Source: Bacteroides sp. Marseille-P3684
GTDB taxonomy: Bacteria > Bacteroidota > Bacteroidia > Bacteroidales > Bacteroidaceae
Length of the DNA stretch: 64,000 bases
Assembly: GCF_900291465.1 (NCBI RefSeq)
Contig: NZ_LT985808.1
Coordinates: 1,253,871 to 1,317,870 of the forward strand
Direction of reading: 5' to 3'
Shown here: positions 137 through 63,606 of the stretch, piece after piece
How the letters are laid out: every line of letters begins with the position of its first letter
Position numbering within the stretch: the first letter of the stretch is position 1
The notes under the pieces: generated by a model
The model's input: only the letters and a program-made list of their open reading frames with translations
Told to the model about the DNA's origin: nothing
Database searches by the model: none
Translations under genes and position numbers: made by a program

Positions 137-227
137 AACCGCCGTATGCGGAACCGCATGTACGGTGGTGTGAGAGGACGGAAAACGAAAGTAGGAAGAA
201 AACTACGTCGTTTTCCTCCTACTCGAT
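137..227 (+). ncRNA. Group II intron domains V and VI
   Basis: Domain V: ACCGCCGTA (138-146) pairs with TACGGTGGT (161-169). An upper stem TGCG/CGCA (147-150/155-158) is closed by the tetraloop GAAC, with a 2-nt bulge TG at 159-160. This is the expected 34-nt layout of the catalytic hairpin. Domain VI: bases 191-203 pair with 210-222 except for one A-C mismatch in the middle, which is the likely place of the branch-point adenosine. The folding was done by eye. The intron subclass is not assigned. Confidence 0.8.
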
Positions 228-3938: not shown

Positions 3939-4026
3939 GTTGTATGGAGACGTGCCGACGCGGACCGGATGGGACGCCGAGGCACACCCTCCCGGCTTAT
4001 CCCGAACACAAACAACCAATGCAAGC

Positions 4027-6831
4027 ATGAAGATTGATCAACTATCCTGCCGTTCCGTCATCCTGACGCTCCTGCTGGGTGCCGTCGGGCTGTCCGCCTG
4101 TGTGGACGAGCGCGAGCGGTCAGTCTCTCCGTCCGCAGCCATCGCCTTTGCGCCGGAGATGCAGCCGGCTGACTCGGCAGCCACACGCGCCCTGTCGTCC
4201 GTCGGCCTGCCTGCCGACACCGTGGTCCCCCTGCACACCTCGTCGGGCAGACCTCTCTACCTGCACACTCTCTATGCCGACACCATTGCGTCCGCTTCCC
4301 TGACCGACGGACAGGACACCCCGGCGCCGGTCCGTGCCCTGCCGGTCGGTACGGACAACTTCTACGACACCTTCGGTGTGTCGGCATACGCCTACACCGG
4401 CGACTGGAGCGACGACTGCACGCCCAACTACATGTACGACGTGGCAGTCGCCCCGTCCGGCAAAGTCTGGGCTTCCGCCAACACCTACTACTGGCCCGGC
4501 AGCACCTGCCGCCTGCGCTTCTTCGCCTATGCACCCCGCGGGAACGATGCCTACGCCTTCTCCGGTGCGGACGCCGCGGGAGCGCCGACCCTGCGCTGTG
4601 TCATCCCTGCCGAAGCCGGCGAACAGAAGGACCTGCTGGTCGCCTCGACCGACGGCTTGCCGGGCGACTACCACCAGGCAGTCCCGCTGACGTTCCGCCA
4701 TGCCCTGACCGCCGTGCGCTTCGTCTGTGGCGACGACATGCGTCCGGGCACCATCCGGCGCATCACCCTGAAGGAGGTCTGTACGTCCGGCGTCTATGAC
4801 CTTGGCGCGGCACAGTGGTCGTCGGTGGACAACCCCTCGGCTTTCGTTCAGGAGCTTGACACGCCGACGGAAGGGACGGCCGACGTGCCCCTCACCACCG
4901 GACCGCAGACCTTCATGATGCTGCCGCAGACCCTGCCTGCCGGAGCGAAAATCGAGATTCTCTTCAACGACGGCACCGAGGACCACCTGCTGACAGCCTC
5001 CATCGGCGGCACCCTGTGGCCCATGGGGAAGACCGTTACTTACCGCATCTCCACCACGTCCATCAACTGGGTGTACACGCTGGAGGCGAAGGGTCCGCGG
5101 GTCTATTCCTTCCGGGGCGAATACGATGAATACGTCGTGACGAGCTACCGCACGCATGTGGTGACCGGGCAGCAGGAACCTGTCGCCTGGAGCGAAACCT
5201 ATTCGCTGGACGGCGGAAAGAGCTGGACCGACGTGCCTCCCCGCTGGACAAACGGCTTTGTCGGGTCGGGGGAAGGCAGCACGAAGCCCCGGTCCTACTC
5301 GCTGTATGTCCGGGAACAGGCGCCCGTCATCCACAACGGGGCGGCGGAGAAGCTGATGAACACACCGCCCAGGGGAACGGCGGACCGTCCGTGGAACCTC
5401 TCGAACCGGACGGGTGCCGACGCGGTGGAGAACACGGCGAACTGCTACGTCATCAACGGACCGGGGCACTACTGCTTCCCCCTTGTCTACGGCAACGCCA
5501 TCCGCAACGGAGCCGACAACCCGGCAGCCTACAGTTCCACCAGCACCAACCCCTACGTGCTCAAGCAGTTCGTCAACTACATCAATTACCCCATCACCAA
5601 GCCCTACATCGACGAGGGCTATGCCTACCCGTTGACTTCGGCGGAAATCCTGTGGCAGGACGAACCGGGGCTGGTGACGGACGTCCGCTACCACGCCGAG
5701 CCGGGGCGGGGCACCATCTCGTTTGCCGTCCCCCGGGAGACCATCAAGGAGGGGAATGCGGTCATTGTGCTGAAGGACGAACGCGGGCAGGTCATCTGGT
5801 CGTGGCACATCTGGGTGACTTCTGCCGACGTGGAGCAGACCATCCGCGTGAAGGCGTTCCATGCAAAGGAAGCATACGTGCGTGTCTTCGAGTTCATGCC
5901 GGTCAACCTCGGCTGGTGCGGGATGGCCGAAGTGGAGTACCCCGGGCGGGAGTGCCTGGTGAAGTTCACGGCAGGCGAGCTGTCTCGGGTCATCACGGTC
6001 CGTCAGGAGGAGTACACCTACCACTACGCCGGCTGCGGCACCTACTACCAGTGGGGGCGCAAGGAGCCGTTCCCCGGCTCCGGCTTCAATGCCTGGCAGG
6101 AGAAGAACCTCTACGACGGTGCCGACAGGCTCATCGTGAGCAGCTATCCCGGGAAAGGATACGCTACGGAATACTACCTGACTGCCTGGTCAGCCGGCGC
6201 TGTGAGCCTCTACAACGGCATCCGGAATCCGATGTACCTGAACCGGACGTCCGGCAACACCTTCTACAACTTGTGGAACGCCATCAATGACGCGCCTACC
6301 TGGTACCACGCAGCCTACGGTCCGGGCGTGATTTACGGTCACCGGGAGGGGGGATACCCCACCTATGTCATAAACCCGATGGAGAGCGACAACCGGGTTG
6401 TCAAGACCGTCTACGACCCGTCGCCCCCGGGCTTCCATGTGCCGCCCGTCACGGCATTCACCCGCTGTGCGGTCCTGAAGGAGGGACCGCCCGTCATGGC
6501 AGATGCCAACGGCACGTGGGACGACACGCAGAAAGGCTTCCGCTTCTACTGCGACGAGACGAAGTCCGGCACGGTCTTCCTGCCTGCACAGGGCATGAGG
6601 ACCTATGTGAACGGAAAGGTCGTCGACTATGCCAAGTTCGGATATTACTGGACAGCGGGCAATGCCTACCGCGACCATAAGCCGGGCCCGGCGCCCGCTC
6701 CACCTGCCGATGCGCCCTCCTGCGGACATACGATGATGTTCCGGGGGGATGTCAAGGTGGTCGACCCTTTCACCTGTTCCGGACATGCGTATGCGTTGCC
6801 GGTCCGTGCCGTGAGGGAGGAAGTGAATTGA
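4027..6831 (+). CDS. Large fimbrillin-family lipoprotein, probable tip/adhesin subunit
   Basis: 934 residues from ATG 4027, chosen because it is followed at once by a lipoprotein signal (lipobox L-S-A-C, Cys25). An in-frame upstream ATG at 3940 would put 29 extra hydrophilic residues before it. Residues about 30-340 are a fimbrillin domain (D-N-F-Y-D-T-F-G-V, N-T-Y-Y-W-P-G, F-R-H-A-L-T-A-V). A middle region follows with repeated T-Y-S-L-D-G-G-K-S-W-like strands. The C-terminal 300 residues contain G-C-G-T-Y-Y-Q-W-G-R-K, Y-D-P-S-P-P-G-F-H-V-P, Y-Y-W-T-A-G-N and a closing A-L-P-V-R-A-V-R. This resembles the FISUMP-type domain often carried by Bacteroidetes adhesins. Its size and position last in the operon fit a tip subunit (inference). 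Confidence 0.75.
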   Translation: MKIDQLSCRSVILTLLLGAVGLSACVDERERSVSPSAAIAFAPEMQPADSAATRALSSVGLPADTVVPLHTSSGRPLYLHTLYADTIASASLTDGQDTPAPVRALPVGTDNFYDTFGVSAYAYTGDWSDDCTPNYMYDVAVAPSGKVWASANTYYWPGSTCRLRFFAYAPRGNDAYAFSGADAAGAPTLRCVIPAEAGEQKDLLVASTDGLPGDYHQAVPLTFRHALTAVRFVCGDDMRPGTIRRITLKEVCTSGVYDLGAAQWSSVDNPSAFVQELDTPTEGTADVPLTTGPQTFMMLPQTLPAGAKIEILFNDGTEDHLLTASIGGTLWPMGKTVTYRISTTSINWVYTLEAKGPRVYSFRGEYDEYVVTSYRTHVVTGQQEPVAWSETYSLDGGKSWTDVPPRWTNGFVGSGEGSTKPRSYSLYVREQAPVIHNGAAEKLMNTPPRGTADRPWNLSNRTGADAVENTANCYVINGPGHYCFPLVYGNAIRNGADNPAAYSSTSTNPYVLKQFVNYINYPITKPYIDEGYAYPLTSAEILWQDEPGLVTDVRYHAEPGRGTISFAVPRETIKEGNAVIVLKDERGQVIWSWHIWVTSADVEQTIRVKAFHAKEAYVRVFEFMPVNLGWCGMAEVEYPGRECLVKFTAGELSRVITVRQEEYTYHYAGCGTYYQWGRKEPFPGSGFNAWQEKNLYDGADRLIVSSYPGKGYATEYYLTAWSAGAVSLYNGIRNPMYLNRTSGNTFYNLWNAINDAPTWYHAAYGPGVIYGHREGGYPTYVINPMESDNRVVKTVYDPSPPGFHVPPVTAFTRCAVLKEGPPVMADANGTWDDTQKGFRFYCDETKSGTVFLPAQGMRTYVNGKVVDYAKFGYYWTAGNAYRDHKPGPAPAPPADAPSCGHTMMFRGDVKVVDPFTCSGHAYALPVRAVREEVN

Positions 6832-7000
6832 CAAAGTGACGCCATCCGGCGGATTTCTCTGTCATAATTCCCCGATTGGGCATTTTCAGCTGACGCGTAC
6901 TTTGACAGTTTCATCTCTTCTAGCGAAAAATTAGATACATATTTTAAGATACGACCGTCGGAATGGGTCGGTATTTTCATCCTGTTAACACAAAAACGGA

Positions 7001-7154
7001 GGTGCGAAGCCTTTCCCGGCACGGTGTGAACCCGTTTTCACCGTCGTACGGACAGGTCCGCACCACCGTACCGACCCATCCGCACCGTCGTGGCGACGCG
7101 TCCGTACGAAAAGAGGCCTCTGTTTTGTCGGGATTCTTTACCTGTTTTCATTTT
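7001..7154. repeat. 22-bp periodic array inside element A
   Basis: Successive 22-bp steps bring back the same words. GGTGCGAA at 7001 is followed by GGTGTGAA at 7023. Dyad cores GTCGTACGGAC, ACCGTACCGAC and GTCGTGGCGAC are centred at 7048, 7070 and 7092. CTGTTTT at 7120 recurs at 7142. GTTTTCA at 7034 recurs at 7144, which is five periods later. TCGTACGGAC (7044-7053) is also an exact inverted repeat of GTCCGTACGA (7100-7109). The units are contiguous, about seven in number, and degenerate. Confidence 0.75.
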
Positions 7155-7294
7155 TAGACGGACGAGGCGTTCTGTTTCTCATCTGTTATATTGACGCCTG
7201 TCCGGATGGCTTGCTGACTTTTAAGCGGAAAATTCGCGTCAGTATGGAACGAAAAGACAGGATAACGAGGAAAGGAGCGACAGGATGTATTTTG

Positions 7295-7369
7295 CGAATC
7301 GCCCGAGAAGGCGCTTTCTGCTCACCAACTCGCAGTTGGGTGCAAGGAAGGCCCTTCTCGGGCGATTCG
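7295..7369. repeat. Long inverted repeat closing element A
   Basis: CGAATCGCCCGAGAAGG (7295-7311) is perfectly inverted at 7353-7369. A second hairpin, CCAACT/AGTTGG (7325-7330/7334-7339), sits inside the loop. The stem is strong enough to fold as RNA or to extrude as a cruciform. Element B keeps the left arm but not a matching right arm. Confidence 0.85.
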
Positions 7370-7384
7370 TTTGACATTTTGACA

Positions 7385-24741: not shown

Positions 24742-24918
24742 AAACACAGGCCTTCAACCGGGTAAACACAAGGGCTTGACTTGATACGCATAAGGGCTTG
24801 GCATACCAAAGTATCATACTTTGGTCTGTCAAACTACTATGTTTGTCAGGTCAAACTCATGTGTTTGTCAGGTCAAACACGTATGTTTCGTCCGTCGGAC
24901 AATTATGTTTACCGGGAG
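24742..24918. repeat. Array C: about eight 22-bp degenerate tandem units
   Basis: Units begin at 24742, 24764, 24786, 24808, 24831, 24853, 24875 and 24897. All are 22 bp except the fourth, which has one extra base. Units 5-7 read AAAC-N6-GTTT-N8, with tails GTCAGGTC, GTCAGGTC and CGTCCGTC; unit 8 has GGAC-N6-GTTT. Unit 4 is centred on a 21-bp perfect palindrome (24805-24825, centre 24815). The dyad centres therefore follow at 22-bp steps (24837.5, 24859.5, 24881.5). Units 2 and 3 share AAGGGCTTG. The array lies between the terminator of the glycosidase operon and the efflux operon promoter. Confidence 0.8.
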
Positions 24919-34450: not shown

Positions 34451-35608
34451 TCAGACACGGAAGGTGTTCCGTTCTGCAGCCTGACGGTCTCTTCCCGGTC
34501 GTTCACTCGGACGTGGACGGTTGGTGGGTCGGACAGCCGGGCGTTCGTTTCGTGAGGGGCGTACGGCAGGACGTTCGGGTCTCGACGGACGTTCGTTGCG
34601 GCTCGGCATCACGTTGGGACGTTGTGGACGTTCCACCCGTGAAGGTCGTTCGTTCTTATCGGGTCTCTGCGGACGCTCGATGCGTGAGGGACGGACAGCG
34701 GGTCTGTCGTTACGGTCAGGTCTGGACGGGCGTTCGATACTGACGGGTCTTGACGGTCGTTCATCGCGTGAAGGTCTGATGTTCGGACGGTCGTTGTTGT
34801 TGGGTCTTGACGGTCGTTCATCCCGTGAGGGCCTGATGTTCGGACGGTCGTTGTGACCGGGTCTTGACGGACGCTCGACTTGTGAGGGCCTTCGTCCCGG
34901 ACGGTCATTGTAGCCGGGTCTTGTCGGCCGGTTCTCATGCGGCGGACGGATACCGGGGCGGTCAGGGCGATGACCGATGCCAGGGCGATGGTCGACGATG
35001 GGGCGTGGCGGACGTCCGGCAATGCCGGGACCGAAGTCATGCCGCCGGTAGTAGTCGTAATGGGAGTGTCGGGTCGGACGTGCCCAGATGCCCGTATAGC
35101 GTGGGTGGTGATAACGGTTGCAGTAGTATCCGTGTGCGAAGTGTGCCCGGCTATGGATGCCCACATAGGTCAGAAAGTTCAGCGGAGCAGCAAAATAGAA
35201 GAACGTCGGGTCGTCATATACCGCATAGATGCGCAGGCGGCAGCTGCGGTCGTTGACGTACAGCGGACGGTAGAAGTAGTCGCGGTTCATGAAGCGTTCG
35301 AACTGGCTGCGGGTGAGCACATAGCTCAGGTCGTCGTTGCGCAGGTCGAGATTCTGGTAGTATTCGTCGATGGCATAGCTGTATCCGGCAGCGAGGTCGT
35401 CGGCAACGTAGCGTATCCGGTCGAAGAAGTCAAAGTTGATTTCGTAGACGTCGGTGATTTGCATGCTGCTCAGTCGCAGTTCATACGCCATGCGGTCGGT
35501 CATGAAGCGCGCACTGTTGCGCACCTCCGTCGTGCTCAGCATGGCAAAGCTTGCCACGGTGCACAGGCAGAAAGCCACCATCAGGACGATTCTCTTCATA
35601 CATTTCAT
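34451..35608 (-). CDS. Secreted protein with Pro/Arg-rich tandem repeats
   Basis: 385 residues (ATG 35599 would remove three) with signal peptide ending near S-F-A. The first part (about 25-185) is a Tyr/Asp-rich folded domain (M-A-Y-E-L-R-L-S, F-D-F-F-D-R-I-R-Y-V, F-E-R-F-M-N-R-D-Y-F-Y-R-P-L-Y). It ends in a Tyr/His/Arg-rich stretch. From about residue 190 to the end it is nearly all Pro, Arg, Asn, Asp, Glu and Ser, with variations on N-D-R-P-N-I-R-P-S-R-D-E-R-P-S-R-P. Two neighbouring copies are nearly identical, implying recent slippage-type expansion. The strongly basic tail could bind polyanions such as LPS or polysaccharide (inference). I do not recognise a named family. Confidence 0.75.
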   Translation of the reverse strand: MKCMKRIVLMVAFCLCTVASFAMLSTTEVRNSARFMTDRMAYELRLSSMQITDVYEINFDFFDRIRYVADDLAAGYSYAIDEYYQNLDLRNDDLSYVLTRSQFERFMNRDYFYRPLYVNDRSCRLRIYAVYDDPTFFYFAAPLNFLTYVGIHSRAHFAHGYYCNRYHHPRYTGIWARPTRHSHYDYYRRHDFGPGIAGRPPRPIVDHRPGIGHRPDRPGIRPPHENRPTRPGYNDRPGRRPSQVERPSRPGHNDRPNIRPSRDERPSRPNNNDRPNIRPSRDERPSRPVSIERPSRPDRNDRPAVRPSRIERPQRPDKNERPSRVERPQRPNVMPSRNERPSRPERPAVRPSRNERPAVRPTNRPRPSERPGRDRQAAERNTFRV

Positions 35609-53608: not shown

Positions 53609-54412
53609 ATGTTTGTTTCGGTACTAATCTCTACGTATAACTGGAAAGATGCGCTGGCTCTTTGTGTCCGTAGTGTATTCCGTCAGACAGTCAAGCCTGC
53701 CGAGATTGTCATTGCGGACGACGGTTCGCGCGACGATACGCGTGAGATGATCGAAGAGCTGCGCCAGGAAACAGACATACCCATTGTTCATGTGTGGCAC
53801 GAGGACCGAGGCTTCCGCAAGACGGAAATCCTCAACAAGGCCATCATGAAAGTCTCTCATCCTTACATCATACAGATTGACGGCGATGTCGTACTCGACA
53901 AGCATTTCATAGCCGACCATCTGGAGCTGGCCGAGAAAGACTACTTTGTCTGCGGTAGCCGTGTCGGTGTCGATCCCCATCAGACGGAACGTTTCTTCAA
54001 GACGAAGGGTAAGTTCCGCCCCTACTTTTTTCAGCTGACGTTCATGTATATGCTCAACTCCTTCCGTTCCAAGTGGGTACGCCGTTACCTGGAGAAACGC
54101 TATTTCCCGAAGAACATCAAGCGCCTGCGTGGGTGCAACATGGCATTCTGGAAAGAGGACCTCCTGAAGGTCAACGGTTACAACGAGGACCTCACCATGT
54201 GGGGACAGGAAGATACTGAAATAGCCTACCGCCTGATATTTGCCGGAGTGAAGAAAAAGTTCCTCAAGGCAGGCGGGGTGGAGTATCACCTCTATCACAA
54301 GCCCGCCTCCCGTGCCAACCTGGAGTTCCATAACCGGGTGCTCGACGAGGTCATTGCCGAGCATCGTTCCTGGTGTGAGAATGGGATTGTGAAAGGGAAG
54401 AAGGAGAGATGA
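53609..54412 (+). CDS. Family 2 glycosyltransferase (first of a tandem pair)
   Basis: 267 residues, GT-A fold. S-T-Y-N-W-K-D-A-L (residues 8-16) starts the nucleotide-binding strand. I-A-D-D-G-S-R-D-D-T (about 36-45) and Q-I-D-G-D-V-V (about 91-97, the metal-binding DxD-type site) follow. A galactosyltransferase-like C-terminal part has G-C-N-M-A-F-W and W-G-Q-E-D-T-E. No membrane span. It is closely related to the next gene, suggesting duplication. It adds a sugar in surface-polysaccharide or LPS-core synthesis (inference). Confidence 0.9.
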   Translation: MFVSVLISTYNWKDALALCVRSVFRQTVKPAEIVIADDGSRDDTREMIEELRQETDIPIVHVWHEDRGFRKTEILNKAIMKVSHPYIIQIDGDVVLDKHFIADHLELAEKDYFVCGSRVGVDPHQTERFFKTKGKFRPYFFQLTFMYMLNSFRSKWVRRYLEKRYFPKNIKRLRGCNMAFWKEDLLKVNGYNEDLTMWGQEDTEIAYRLIFAGVKKKFLKAGGVEYHLYHKPASRANLEFHNRVLDEVIAEHRSWCENGIVKGKKER

Positions 54413-54437: not shown

Positions 54438-55241
54438 ATGGAATGTATGCAGCTTAGCACATCCTTGATTATATCTACCTACAATTGGCCGGAAGCGCTT
54501 TCTCTTTGTCTGGAGAGTGTGCTGCATCAGACCGTGCTTCCCGACGAGGTGATCATTGCTGACGACGGTTCGCGTGATGACACACGTCGGTTGATCGAGG
54601 CATTCCGCCAACGGTGTCCCGTGCCGCTGCTTCATGTCTGGCATGAAGACGACGGTTTCCGCAAGACACAAATCATGAACCAGGCCTTTCTGCAAGTTTC
54701 TCATCCTTATATCATTCAGATTGACGGTGACATCATCCTGAACCGTCATTTTGTGGAAGACCATCTCCATTTTGCACGGGAAGGAAGTTTTGTCACAGGC
54801 AGCCGGGTTGTCATTGGCAAAGAGCTGACCCAACGCCTGCTCAGGACACATCGGTGGAGATTTTCGCTGTTCACTCCCGGACTTCACAACCGCCTGAATG
54901 GTTTGCGGCTTCCGTTTCTGACAAAGAGCCAGGAGAACTACCGGCAACATGACACACTCTATGTGCGGGGCTGTAATATGGCCTTTTGGCGAAAGGACAT
55001 TTTTGCAGTCAATGGCTATGATGAGGCCATTACCGGATGGGGACGTGAAGACAATGAACTCGCCGAGCGGCTGATCAATTCCGGTATTCGCAAACGCGTC
55101 ATCAAATTTTCCGCCATTGCTTTTCATCTTTACCATGAATGGCGGTCACGCGGAAGCGTGGAGCGTAATGATGAAATCCTCCACTCGACCATGACGCAGA
55201 AACGAACACGTTGCGAACGGGGAATTGACGGGCATACTTGA
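54438..55241 (+). CDS. Family 2 glycosyltransferase (second of the tandem pair)
   Basis: 267 residues if ATG 54438 is used; 54447 is an alternative. The layout is the same as the upstream paralogue: S-T-Y-N-W-P-E-A-L, I-A-D-D-G-S-R-D-D-T, Q-I-D-G-D-I-I-L-N, G-C-N-M-A-F-W and W-G-R-E-D-N-E. The middle (about 130-170) differs, which is where acceptor specificity is usually set. It is 25 bp after its paralogue. Confidence 0.9.
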   Translation: MECMQLSTSLIISTYNWPEALSLCLESVLHQTVLPDEVIIADDGSRDDTRRLIEAFRQRCPVPLLHVWHEDDGFRKTQIMNQAFLQVSHPYIIQIDGDIILNRHFVEDHLHFAREGSFVTGSRVVIGKELTQRLLRTHRWRFSLFTPGLHNRLNGLRLPFLTKSQENYRQHDTLYVRGCNMAFWRKDIFAVNGYDEAITGWGREDNELAERLINSGIRKRVIKFSAIAFHLYHEWRSRGSVERNDEILHSTMTQKRTRCERGIDGHT

Positions 55242-63042: not shown

Positions 63043-63124
63043 ATGGTTATCCGTGAATGGTTGACAGATTGCAACCCAGTCAGACAAATCCCTTTACAGA
63101 ATTGATGAAAATGCCGTTCCCGGC

Positions 63125-63606
63125 TAACGCGTACTTTTGAAAAATCGGGCAAAGTAGGCTTTTTTAGGAATATTCATGCGAAACGGTTTGCATGGATATG
63201 TAGAAATCAGGGCAAAAACGAATAATTATACCGCGAAACAATATTGTTTCACTCTTCAAACAATATTGTTTGACGTCCCAAACAATATTGTTTCATCCGC
63301 CGAAGTCAACTATTCGGAAGAAAAAACACTTGATTTGCATTTCTGAAACACTATTTTAGAACTGTTTACCTCTAGTTTGTTGCCGGAAGCGTCCGATTGA
63401 GAGGTGTGAAAAGGTATGGTCTGTTTCCTGATATTGTTCCCGTATGATGTCCCGTGAGTCTGTTTTCGTGCTGTTTGGATGTCGCATGAGTGGATAGGGT
63501 GTCAATGTGTATTTCGCGAATCGCCCGAGAAGGCCCTCCGAATCCATCAAGCCGTATTTTGGTGCGAGGAATGCATTTTCAGAGGGGTTCATTTGACGTT
63601 TTGACA
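63125..63606. repeat. Element B: second copy of the conserved-ends element
   Basis: ACGCGTACTTT (63127-63137), CAAAAACG (63213-63220), TGTATTTCGCGAATCGCCCG (63508-63527, running on into AGAAGG) and TTTGACGTTTTGACA (63592-63606) repeat the words of element A in order. The last three are exactly 56,222 bp to the right of theirs; the first is 12 bp closer to the array than in A. Interior bases are almost unrelated but carry a 22-bp array. It lies 82 bp downstream of the ECF sigma factor. Confidence 0.75.
63236..63389. repeat. 22-bp periodic array inside element B
   Basis: AAACAATATTGTTT occurs three times at exact 22-bp steps (63236, 63258, 63280), each followed by a different 8-bp tail. Later units at 63324 and 63346 keep the phase with AAACACT. 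Units at 63302 and 63368 are degenerate. Each 14-bp core is a perfect palindrome. Confidence 0.9.

What the first reader, a model, noticed from the sequence alone, without database searches (positions are those of the whole stretch)
6891..7384. Two distant non-coding elements share ends at one exact offset but not their interiors
Elements A (6891-7384) and B (63125-63606) share CAAAAACG, the word TGTATTT(T/C)GCGAATCGCCCG continuing into AGAAGG, and TTTGAC(A/G)TTTTGACA. Each is shifted by exactly 56,222 bp, so about 394 bp are collinear with no net indel. A fourth word, ACGCGTACTTT, precedes both (offset 56,234). The interiors are nearly unrelated, although both are 22-bp arrays. Conserved ends, fixed length and a fast-changing phased interior suggest a defined element, not random decay. 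It could be a mobile miniature element, a structured RNA, or a docking site with exchangeable binding modules. I know of no described family with this design.
Basis: seen in the sequence. Interest (0 to 1): 0.85.

Follow-up and report, generated by a model that had tools for sequence, protein, structure and literature searches.

The report
Dispersed intergenic elements with swappable arrays
The two non-coding stretches are two of about 110 copies of one roughly 560-base element scattered between the genes of this gut bacterium; all share the same two ends and a phased row of symmetrical 22-base units whose sequence comes in two versions, a design close to a known element of Porphyromonas gingivalis but larger in number, kept at a fixed length and sorted by chromosome region.

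Summary
In detail: all four shared words sit at the stated offsets, and A and B are true relatives. They are two of about 110 intergenic copies of a TIR-bounded, roughly 560-bp element. 109 of 110 left ends are paired with a right end, 104 of them at 440-490 bp. Nearly every copy (104 of 115) carries a 22-bp-phased array; matched flanking DNA has almost none. The arrays use two unrelated palindromic alphabets: GTACGGACGCGTCCGTAC (about 29 copies, including A) and AAACAATATTGTTT (about 79, including B). No codon signal, RNA covariation or Rfam match was found. Copies are old and star-like, yet length and about 95 columns are strongly conserved. Congeners lack the family, apart from one degenerate right end. 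Best reading: an old, MITE-like family whose interior is a helically phased array of binding sites for a dimeric DNA-binding protein (inferred). The design is not unprecedented: the BrickBuilt MITE of P. gingivalis has leader, 23-bp array, tail and TIRs. New here are the exchangeable palindromic alphabets, strict length, copy number, and confinement of the G/C alphabet to one third of the chromosome. No target-site duplication or transposase was found.

The parts
6828..7384 (+). Element A, whole (G/C alphabet, subtype I' branch with L099, L125, L139, L144)
   Evidence: R2 left end at 6828-6917, R1 right end at genome 1261156-1261263; sharp boundaries from about 100 copies
6828..6838 (+). Left terminal inverted repeat of A, TTGACAAAGTG; overlaps the TGA stop (6829-6831) of the upstream fimbrillin-like gene 3940-6831
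6880..6935 (+). Conserved left-end block TTTTCAGCTGACGCGTACTTT and following bases
7045..7108 (+). 22-bp-phased array of A, CGTACGGACAGGTCCGCACC type
   Evidence: TRF; interior autocorrelation
7285..7369 (+). Right-end conserved block of A, inverted repeat GCGAATCGCCCGAGAAGG ... CCTTCTCGGGCGATTCG; also reads as a 29-codon frame without coding signal
   Evidence: (I2)
7370..7384 (+). Right terminus of A, TTTGACATTTTGACA, inverse complement of the left TIR motif
63061..63606 (+). Element B, whole (A/T alphabet, subtype II), downstream of an ECF sigma factor gene
   Evidence: R2 left end 63061-63153, R1 right end genome 1317377-1317486
63236..63293 (+). 22-bp-phased array of B: three AAACAATATTGTTT units with 8-bp spacers
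63507..63591 (+). Right-end conserved block of B (first arm intact, second arm degenerate)
63592..63606 (+). Right terminus of B, TTTGACGTTTTGACA

Best explanation
A and B belong to an old, species-restricted family of MITE-like non-coding elements. Shown: about 110 copies, all between genes, with sharp ends bearing a short imperfect inverted repeat (left TNNCAAAAWG, right CATTTTGACA), paired at a near-fixed distance, an internal array of near-palindromic units at 22-bp pitch, no protein and no detectable RNA fold. Also shown: the family is missing from the orthologous site that could be examined and from congeners generally, and conserved columns and length were kept after the copies diverged. 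Inferred: the copies spread by insertion with a transposase supplied from elsewhere, since lost or not recognised. Each palindromic unit is a site for a dimeric DNA-binding protein; a 22-bp pitch is about two helical turns, so bound dimers line up on one face of the DNA and, together with the ends, build a nucleoprotein complex that needs fixed length. Two unit alphabets mean two binding specificities plugged into one scaffold.
For: About 110 copies genome-wide. 109 of 110 left ends paired with a right end, 104 within 440-490 bp. Information content falls to background just outside both ends in 100 aligned copies. 22-bp phasing in 104 of 115 interiors against 0 and 1 of 115 in left and right flanking windows. 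No third-position excess, no RNA covariation. Dyad symmetry within array units is kept at positions 6/9 (0.84 against 0.63 shuffled, 0 of 500), with no excess pairing between neighbouring units, which favours DNA palindromes over RNA hairpins. Star-like old tree (terminal branches 18.1, internal 6.2), yet 95 of 529 columns have 5 or fewer changes where 0.2 are expected, and lengths fall only at 551, 561-564, 571-574, 582-585 and 595. Empty site at the copy near 694 kb: the congener G003 has a short convergent spacer with a terminator hairpin instead.
Against: No target-site duplication. No transposase with these ends found; the one transposase-linked copy (L129) is an element broken by unrelated IS1634-type insertions. 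No second strain of the species was available, so mobility now is untested. Few near-identical copies, so little recent movement. The binding protein is unknown. Symmetry covariation rests on few unit types of shared descent. Part of the length clustering reflects common ancestry of the two subfamilies.
Confidence: 0.6

Rival explanations
1. Plain MITE family: decaying non-autonomous transposons with a tandem repeat inside; the array has no role beyond transposition or is a passenger.
For: TIRs, intergenic scatter, species restriction, absence from an orthologous site; BrickBuilt precedent (PMC4596501). Two copies look like end-to-end deletion forms (left-right distances 72 and 117).
Against: The copies are old (mean terminal branch 0.18) but length, array phase and many columns are kept; substitution-to-indel ratio about 27:1. 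Dead copies should have lost this.
Confidence: 0.25
2. Chromosome-organising sites: copies were co-opted as docking arrays that mark chromosome regions, in the way that matS or parS sites do.
For: Subtype I lies only between 10 kb and 1.36 Mb and is centred near one GC-skew switch (about 0.53 Mb; median distance 306 kb against 937 kb for subtype II, p 3e-9). In equally GC-rich flanks: 28 I and 6 II in 0-1.4 Mb, 0 I and 20 II elsewhere. Only 6 copies in 2.0-2.75 Mb, 23 expected, around the other skew switch.
Against: Subtype I is one clade and its members are more alike when closer, so local spreading explains the clustering. Which switch is the origin was not verified (no DnaA motif in the fetched segments). 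No strand bias relative to replication (59 of 115).
Confidence: 0.12
3. Family of structured non-coding RNAs, or of short peptide genes (29 codons at the right end).
For: Right-end inverted repeat in many copies; the frame (V/M)YFANRPRR...GRFV* is open in most copies.
Against: No Rfam match, no Watson-Crick covariation, no codon periodicity, about 18 frameshifted copies plus several with stops, second hairpin arm degenerate in many A/T copies.
Confidence: 0.03

Closest known systems
BrickBuilt MITE of Porphyromonas gingivalis (PMC4596501)
   Same: Bacteroidales host, species-restricted, strictly intergenic, leader and tail of different sequence around a tandem array of near-two-turn period (23 nt), short TIRs, self-complementary repeats, no transposase inside.
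   Different: 19 copies against about 110; array of 1 to 23 units against a near-constant 3 to 5; one repeat sequence against two unrelated palindromic alphabets; most BrickBuilt copies lack one end, here 109 of 110 left ends are paired; TIR GAGACCTTTGCA (IS5-like) against TNNCAAAAWG; no sequence relation seen.
BOX elements of Streptococcus pneumoniae (PMC3049150; design from general knowledge)
   Same: Over a hundred intergenic copies; mosaic of two fixed end modules and a repeated middle module.
   Different: Middle modules of about 45 bp in variable number; unrelated sequence; BOX is described with RNA-level features, here DNA palindromes and fixed length.
REP/BIME elements with RAYT transposases (PMC2817692, PMC3733652)
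   Same: More than 100 intergenic copies with palindromes.
   Different: Units of 20-40 bp with tagged hairpins, no fixed 560-bp frame with distinct ends, no 22-bp palindrome array.
Correia elements of Neisseria (PMC10969869)
   Same: Over 120 intergenic copies with transposon-like ends that can carry a protein (IHF) site.
   Different: About 200 bp or less, no phased array, other ends.

Membership tests
MITE (sensu stricto) | Short (50-1000 bp), many copies, no transposase gene | tested here: met
   About 560 bp, about 110 copies, no coding signal
MITE (sensu stricto) | Terminal inverted repeats | tested here: met
   Left TNNCAAAAWG against right CATTTTGACA, short and imperfect
MITE (sensu stricto) | Target-site duplications | tested here: not met
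   No excess of matching flank k-mers at the ends; may have decayed. Therefore called MITE-like only
MITE (sensu stricto) | Autonomous partner with the same ends | tested here: inconclusive
   None seen; the only transposase-linked copy is an unrelated IS1634-type insertion; no systematic IS survey
BrickBuilt | Leader, tandem array of about two helical turns, tail, intergenic, species-specific | tested here: met
   Searches compared with PMC4596501
BrickBuilt | BrickBuilt TIR GAGACCTTTGCA and 23-nt repeat | tested here: not met
   TIR and unit differ
Structured RNA family | Conserved base pairing with compensatory changes | tested here: not met
Protein or peptide gene family | Codon-position bias, frame kept | tested here: not met
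CRISPR or REP/RAYT | Direct repeats with unique 30-bp spacers, or tagged 20-40 bp hairpins | tested here: not met
   14-bp palindromes with 8-bp spacers
Centromere or macrodomain sites (parS, matS type) | Regional chromosomal distribution | tested here: met
   spread of one clade is an alternative cause
Centromere or macrodomain sites (parS, matS type) | Bound by a dedicated segregation or condensation protein | not testable with these tools
   Needs pull-down or ChIP

The most novel reading that the evidence does not exclude
One transposon-derived scaffold carries interchangeable phased palindrome arrays that act as a two-letter address code: G/C arrays mark the third of the chromosome around one replichore boundary, A/T arrays mark the rest, and a separate element family with a third palindrome uses the same 22-bp pitch, all read by dimeric DNA-binding proteins that assemble on one DNA face and organise the chromosome.
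Probability: 0.1. Interest if true: 0.9.

Novelty: new variant of a known kind. Interest (0 to 1): 0.6.

Why it matters
It shows that a BrickBuilt-type design is not a P. gingivalis oddity. Here it has reached about 110 copies (about 60 kb, 1.7% of the genome) and is held to fixed length and helical phase long after spreading, which plain junk DNA should not be. Unrelated array sequences in one scaffold at one 22-bp pitch make a testable case of modular binding-site exchange in a bacterial repeat. If a protein reads the arrays, it would be a new route by which transposon debris becomes chromosome architecture in gut Bacteroidales.

Tried and rejected
Peptide gene at the right end: no codon signal, frameshifts. 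Antisense 133-codon frame in subtype I: open by descent, no codon periodicity. Structured RNA: RNAalifold and covariation gave only subfamily signal. Target-site duplications: none. IS1634-type element as the autonomous partner: it is an insertion inside a copy, with different ends. Hairpins between neighbouring array units: pairing not above shuffled expectation. Exact-pattern scans of GTDB and viral contigs: none. Plasmid collection: none. Gene-context rule: neighbours in all orientations (33 divergent, 30 convergent, 49 tandem). Synteny breaks: 4 of 5 element sites tested against G003 are breakpoints, but 4 further breaks in about 40 kb have no element, so no claim. Assigning origin and terminus by DnaA motif or gene-strand bias failed. 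Promoter and terminator scans of A and B gave about the chance number of sites.

Full report
Observation. The four shared words are at the stated places: CAAAAACG 6991/63213, TGTATTT 7286/63508 and TTTGAC(A/G)TTTTGACA 7370/63592 differ by 56,222; ACGCGTACTTT 6893/63127 differs by 56,234. The direct-repeat finder returns the right-end word at 93% identity with spacing 56,222, and TRF returns 22-bp periods in both interiors.

Genome-wide test. The window is C1:1253871-1317870 of a 3.71-Mb genome. A window protein is closest (92%) to Phocaeicola coprophilus An818, so this is a Phocaeicola-group species. The right-end word alone has 159 hits with up to 3 mismatches, against 5 for the reversed pattern. 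A model of the right end (R1) finds about 110 distinct copies; an independent model of the left end (R2) finds 110 left ends. 109 left ends have a right end on the same strand, 104 at 440-490 bp, most at 456 or 466.

Boundaries. In 100 aligned copies, information content drops to background just outside a left end reading TNNCAAAAWG and a right end reading TTTGACATTTTGACA, which are inverse complements over about ten bases. Flanks are unrelated, apart from other intergenic repeats that cluster with subtype I. No target-site duplication is detectable. Copies lie between genes in all orientations. In A the left repeat TTGACA overlaps the TGA stop of the upstream fimbrillin-like gene.

Arrays. 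104 of 115 interiors have a strong 22- or 44-bp autocorrelation; left and right flanking windows of the same size have 0 and 1. Two alphabets occur: about 29 G/C copies built on CGTACGGACGCGTCCGTACG (A among them) and about 79 A/T copies built on AAAC-N6-GTTT units (B among them), usually AAACAATATTGTTT, with 8-bp spacers. Unit variants keep dyad symmetry within the unit at positions 6/9 (0.84 observed, 0.63 shuffled, 0 of 500), while pairing between neighbouring units is not above shuffled. That points to DNA palindromes, as for dimeric proteins, rather than RNA stems; the test is weakened by shared descent.

Not coding, not RNA. Twenty-two subtype-I copies show no codon-position bias. The 29-codon right-end frame is broken by indels or stops in about a fifth of copies. 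There is no Rfam match and no helical covariation in 100 copies.

Age and constraint. The tree of 100 copies is dominated by terminal branches (18.1 against 6.2 in total; mean terminal 0.18 substitutions per site). Even so, 95 of 529 columns have at most 5 changes, where 0.2 are expected with even rates. The substitution-to-indel ratio is about 27:1, and whole lengths occur only at 551, 561-564, 571-574, 582-585 and 595, steps of about one helical turn or one array unit. Part of this clustering is shared ancestry, but intact length after so much divergence argues against decaying junk and for continued selection, either for a host role or for competence to move. The near absence of recent copies favours a host role (inference).

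Distribution outside the species. None of 392 other genomes of the order passes E 1e-4. Among congeners, G003 has a single degenerate right end (no left end there). Paired AAAC-N6-GTTT units at 22 bp occur 219 times on each strand in this genome and not once in 14 congeners. At the copy near 694 kb, G003 has a short convergent spacer with a terminator hairpin in place of the element and neighbouring repeats. Upstream of the GH43 gene next to A, relatives have a different neighbour and no element.

Regional pattern. Subtype I lies only at 10 kb-1.36 Mb, centred near a GC-skew switch at about 0.53 Mb; subtype II is elsewhere (median distances 306 and 937 kb, p 3e-9). Among copies with equally GC-rich flanks the split is 28 I and 6 II inside 0-1.4 Mb, 0 I and 20 II outside. 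Only 6 copies fall in 2.0-2.75 Mb, around the other skew switch, where 23 are expected. By the usual rule 0.53 Mb would be the origin, but this was not confirmed. Because subtype I is one clade whose members are more alike when closer, local spreading is a sufficient explanation; a zoning role is only a possibility.

A second family. Nine further loci were checked, one of them window 24780-24900; they carry arrays of AAAGTATAATACTT units flanked by AAAC-N6-GTTT units, again at 22-bp pitch but with 1 to about 20 units and no TTTGACA end. The same pitch in a third palindrome supports a common physical reason, such as dimers bound every two turns (inference).

Comparison. The closest design is BrickBuilt of P. 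gingivalis (PMC4596501): leader, 23-nt array, tail, TIRs, intergenic and species-specific. It is not the same family: other TIRs, other unit, variable array length, and many copies there lack an end. The present family is best called MITE-like, because target duplications were sought and not found.

Verdict. It is a new variant of a known kind, with a strong anatomical case and an inferred mechanism.

Noticed in passing
window 24780-24900; L270-L278: Second dispersed array family: AAAGTATAATACTT palindromes at 22-bp pitch flanked by AAAC-N6-GTTT units, unit number varying from 1 to about 20, absent from congeners; in the window it lies upstream of an HlyD-type efflux gene.
   Followed up: partly
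flanks of many subtype-I copies, e.g. L281:10640-10940: Two further intergenic repeats cluster with the elements: CAATTGACAATTGACAATGGACAATTGACAATTG and GTAGGGGCGACCGGTCTGGTCGCCCGGTCC.
   Followed up: no
L233 (G000:C1:961000-972000): Two IS1634-type transposase genes sit side by side inside one element copy; part of the DNA is masked as N.
   Followed up: partly
window 34643-34932: 57-bp tandem repeat, about 3-4 units, 82% identical.
   Followed up: no
window 137-227 (+): Rfam group II intron domain match, 46.9 bits, at the left edge of the window.
   Followed up: no
window 53627-53964 and 54471-54808: Two 267-aa ORFs in tandem share about 70% DNA identity at 844-bp spacing, suggesting a gene duplication.
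   Followed up: no
G000:C1 0.42-1.05 Mb and 2.2-2.5 Mb: GC content is about 0.58-0.61 near one GC-skew switch and about 0.40-0.52 near the other.
   Followed up: partly
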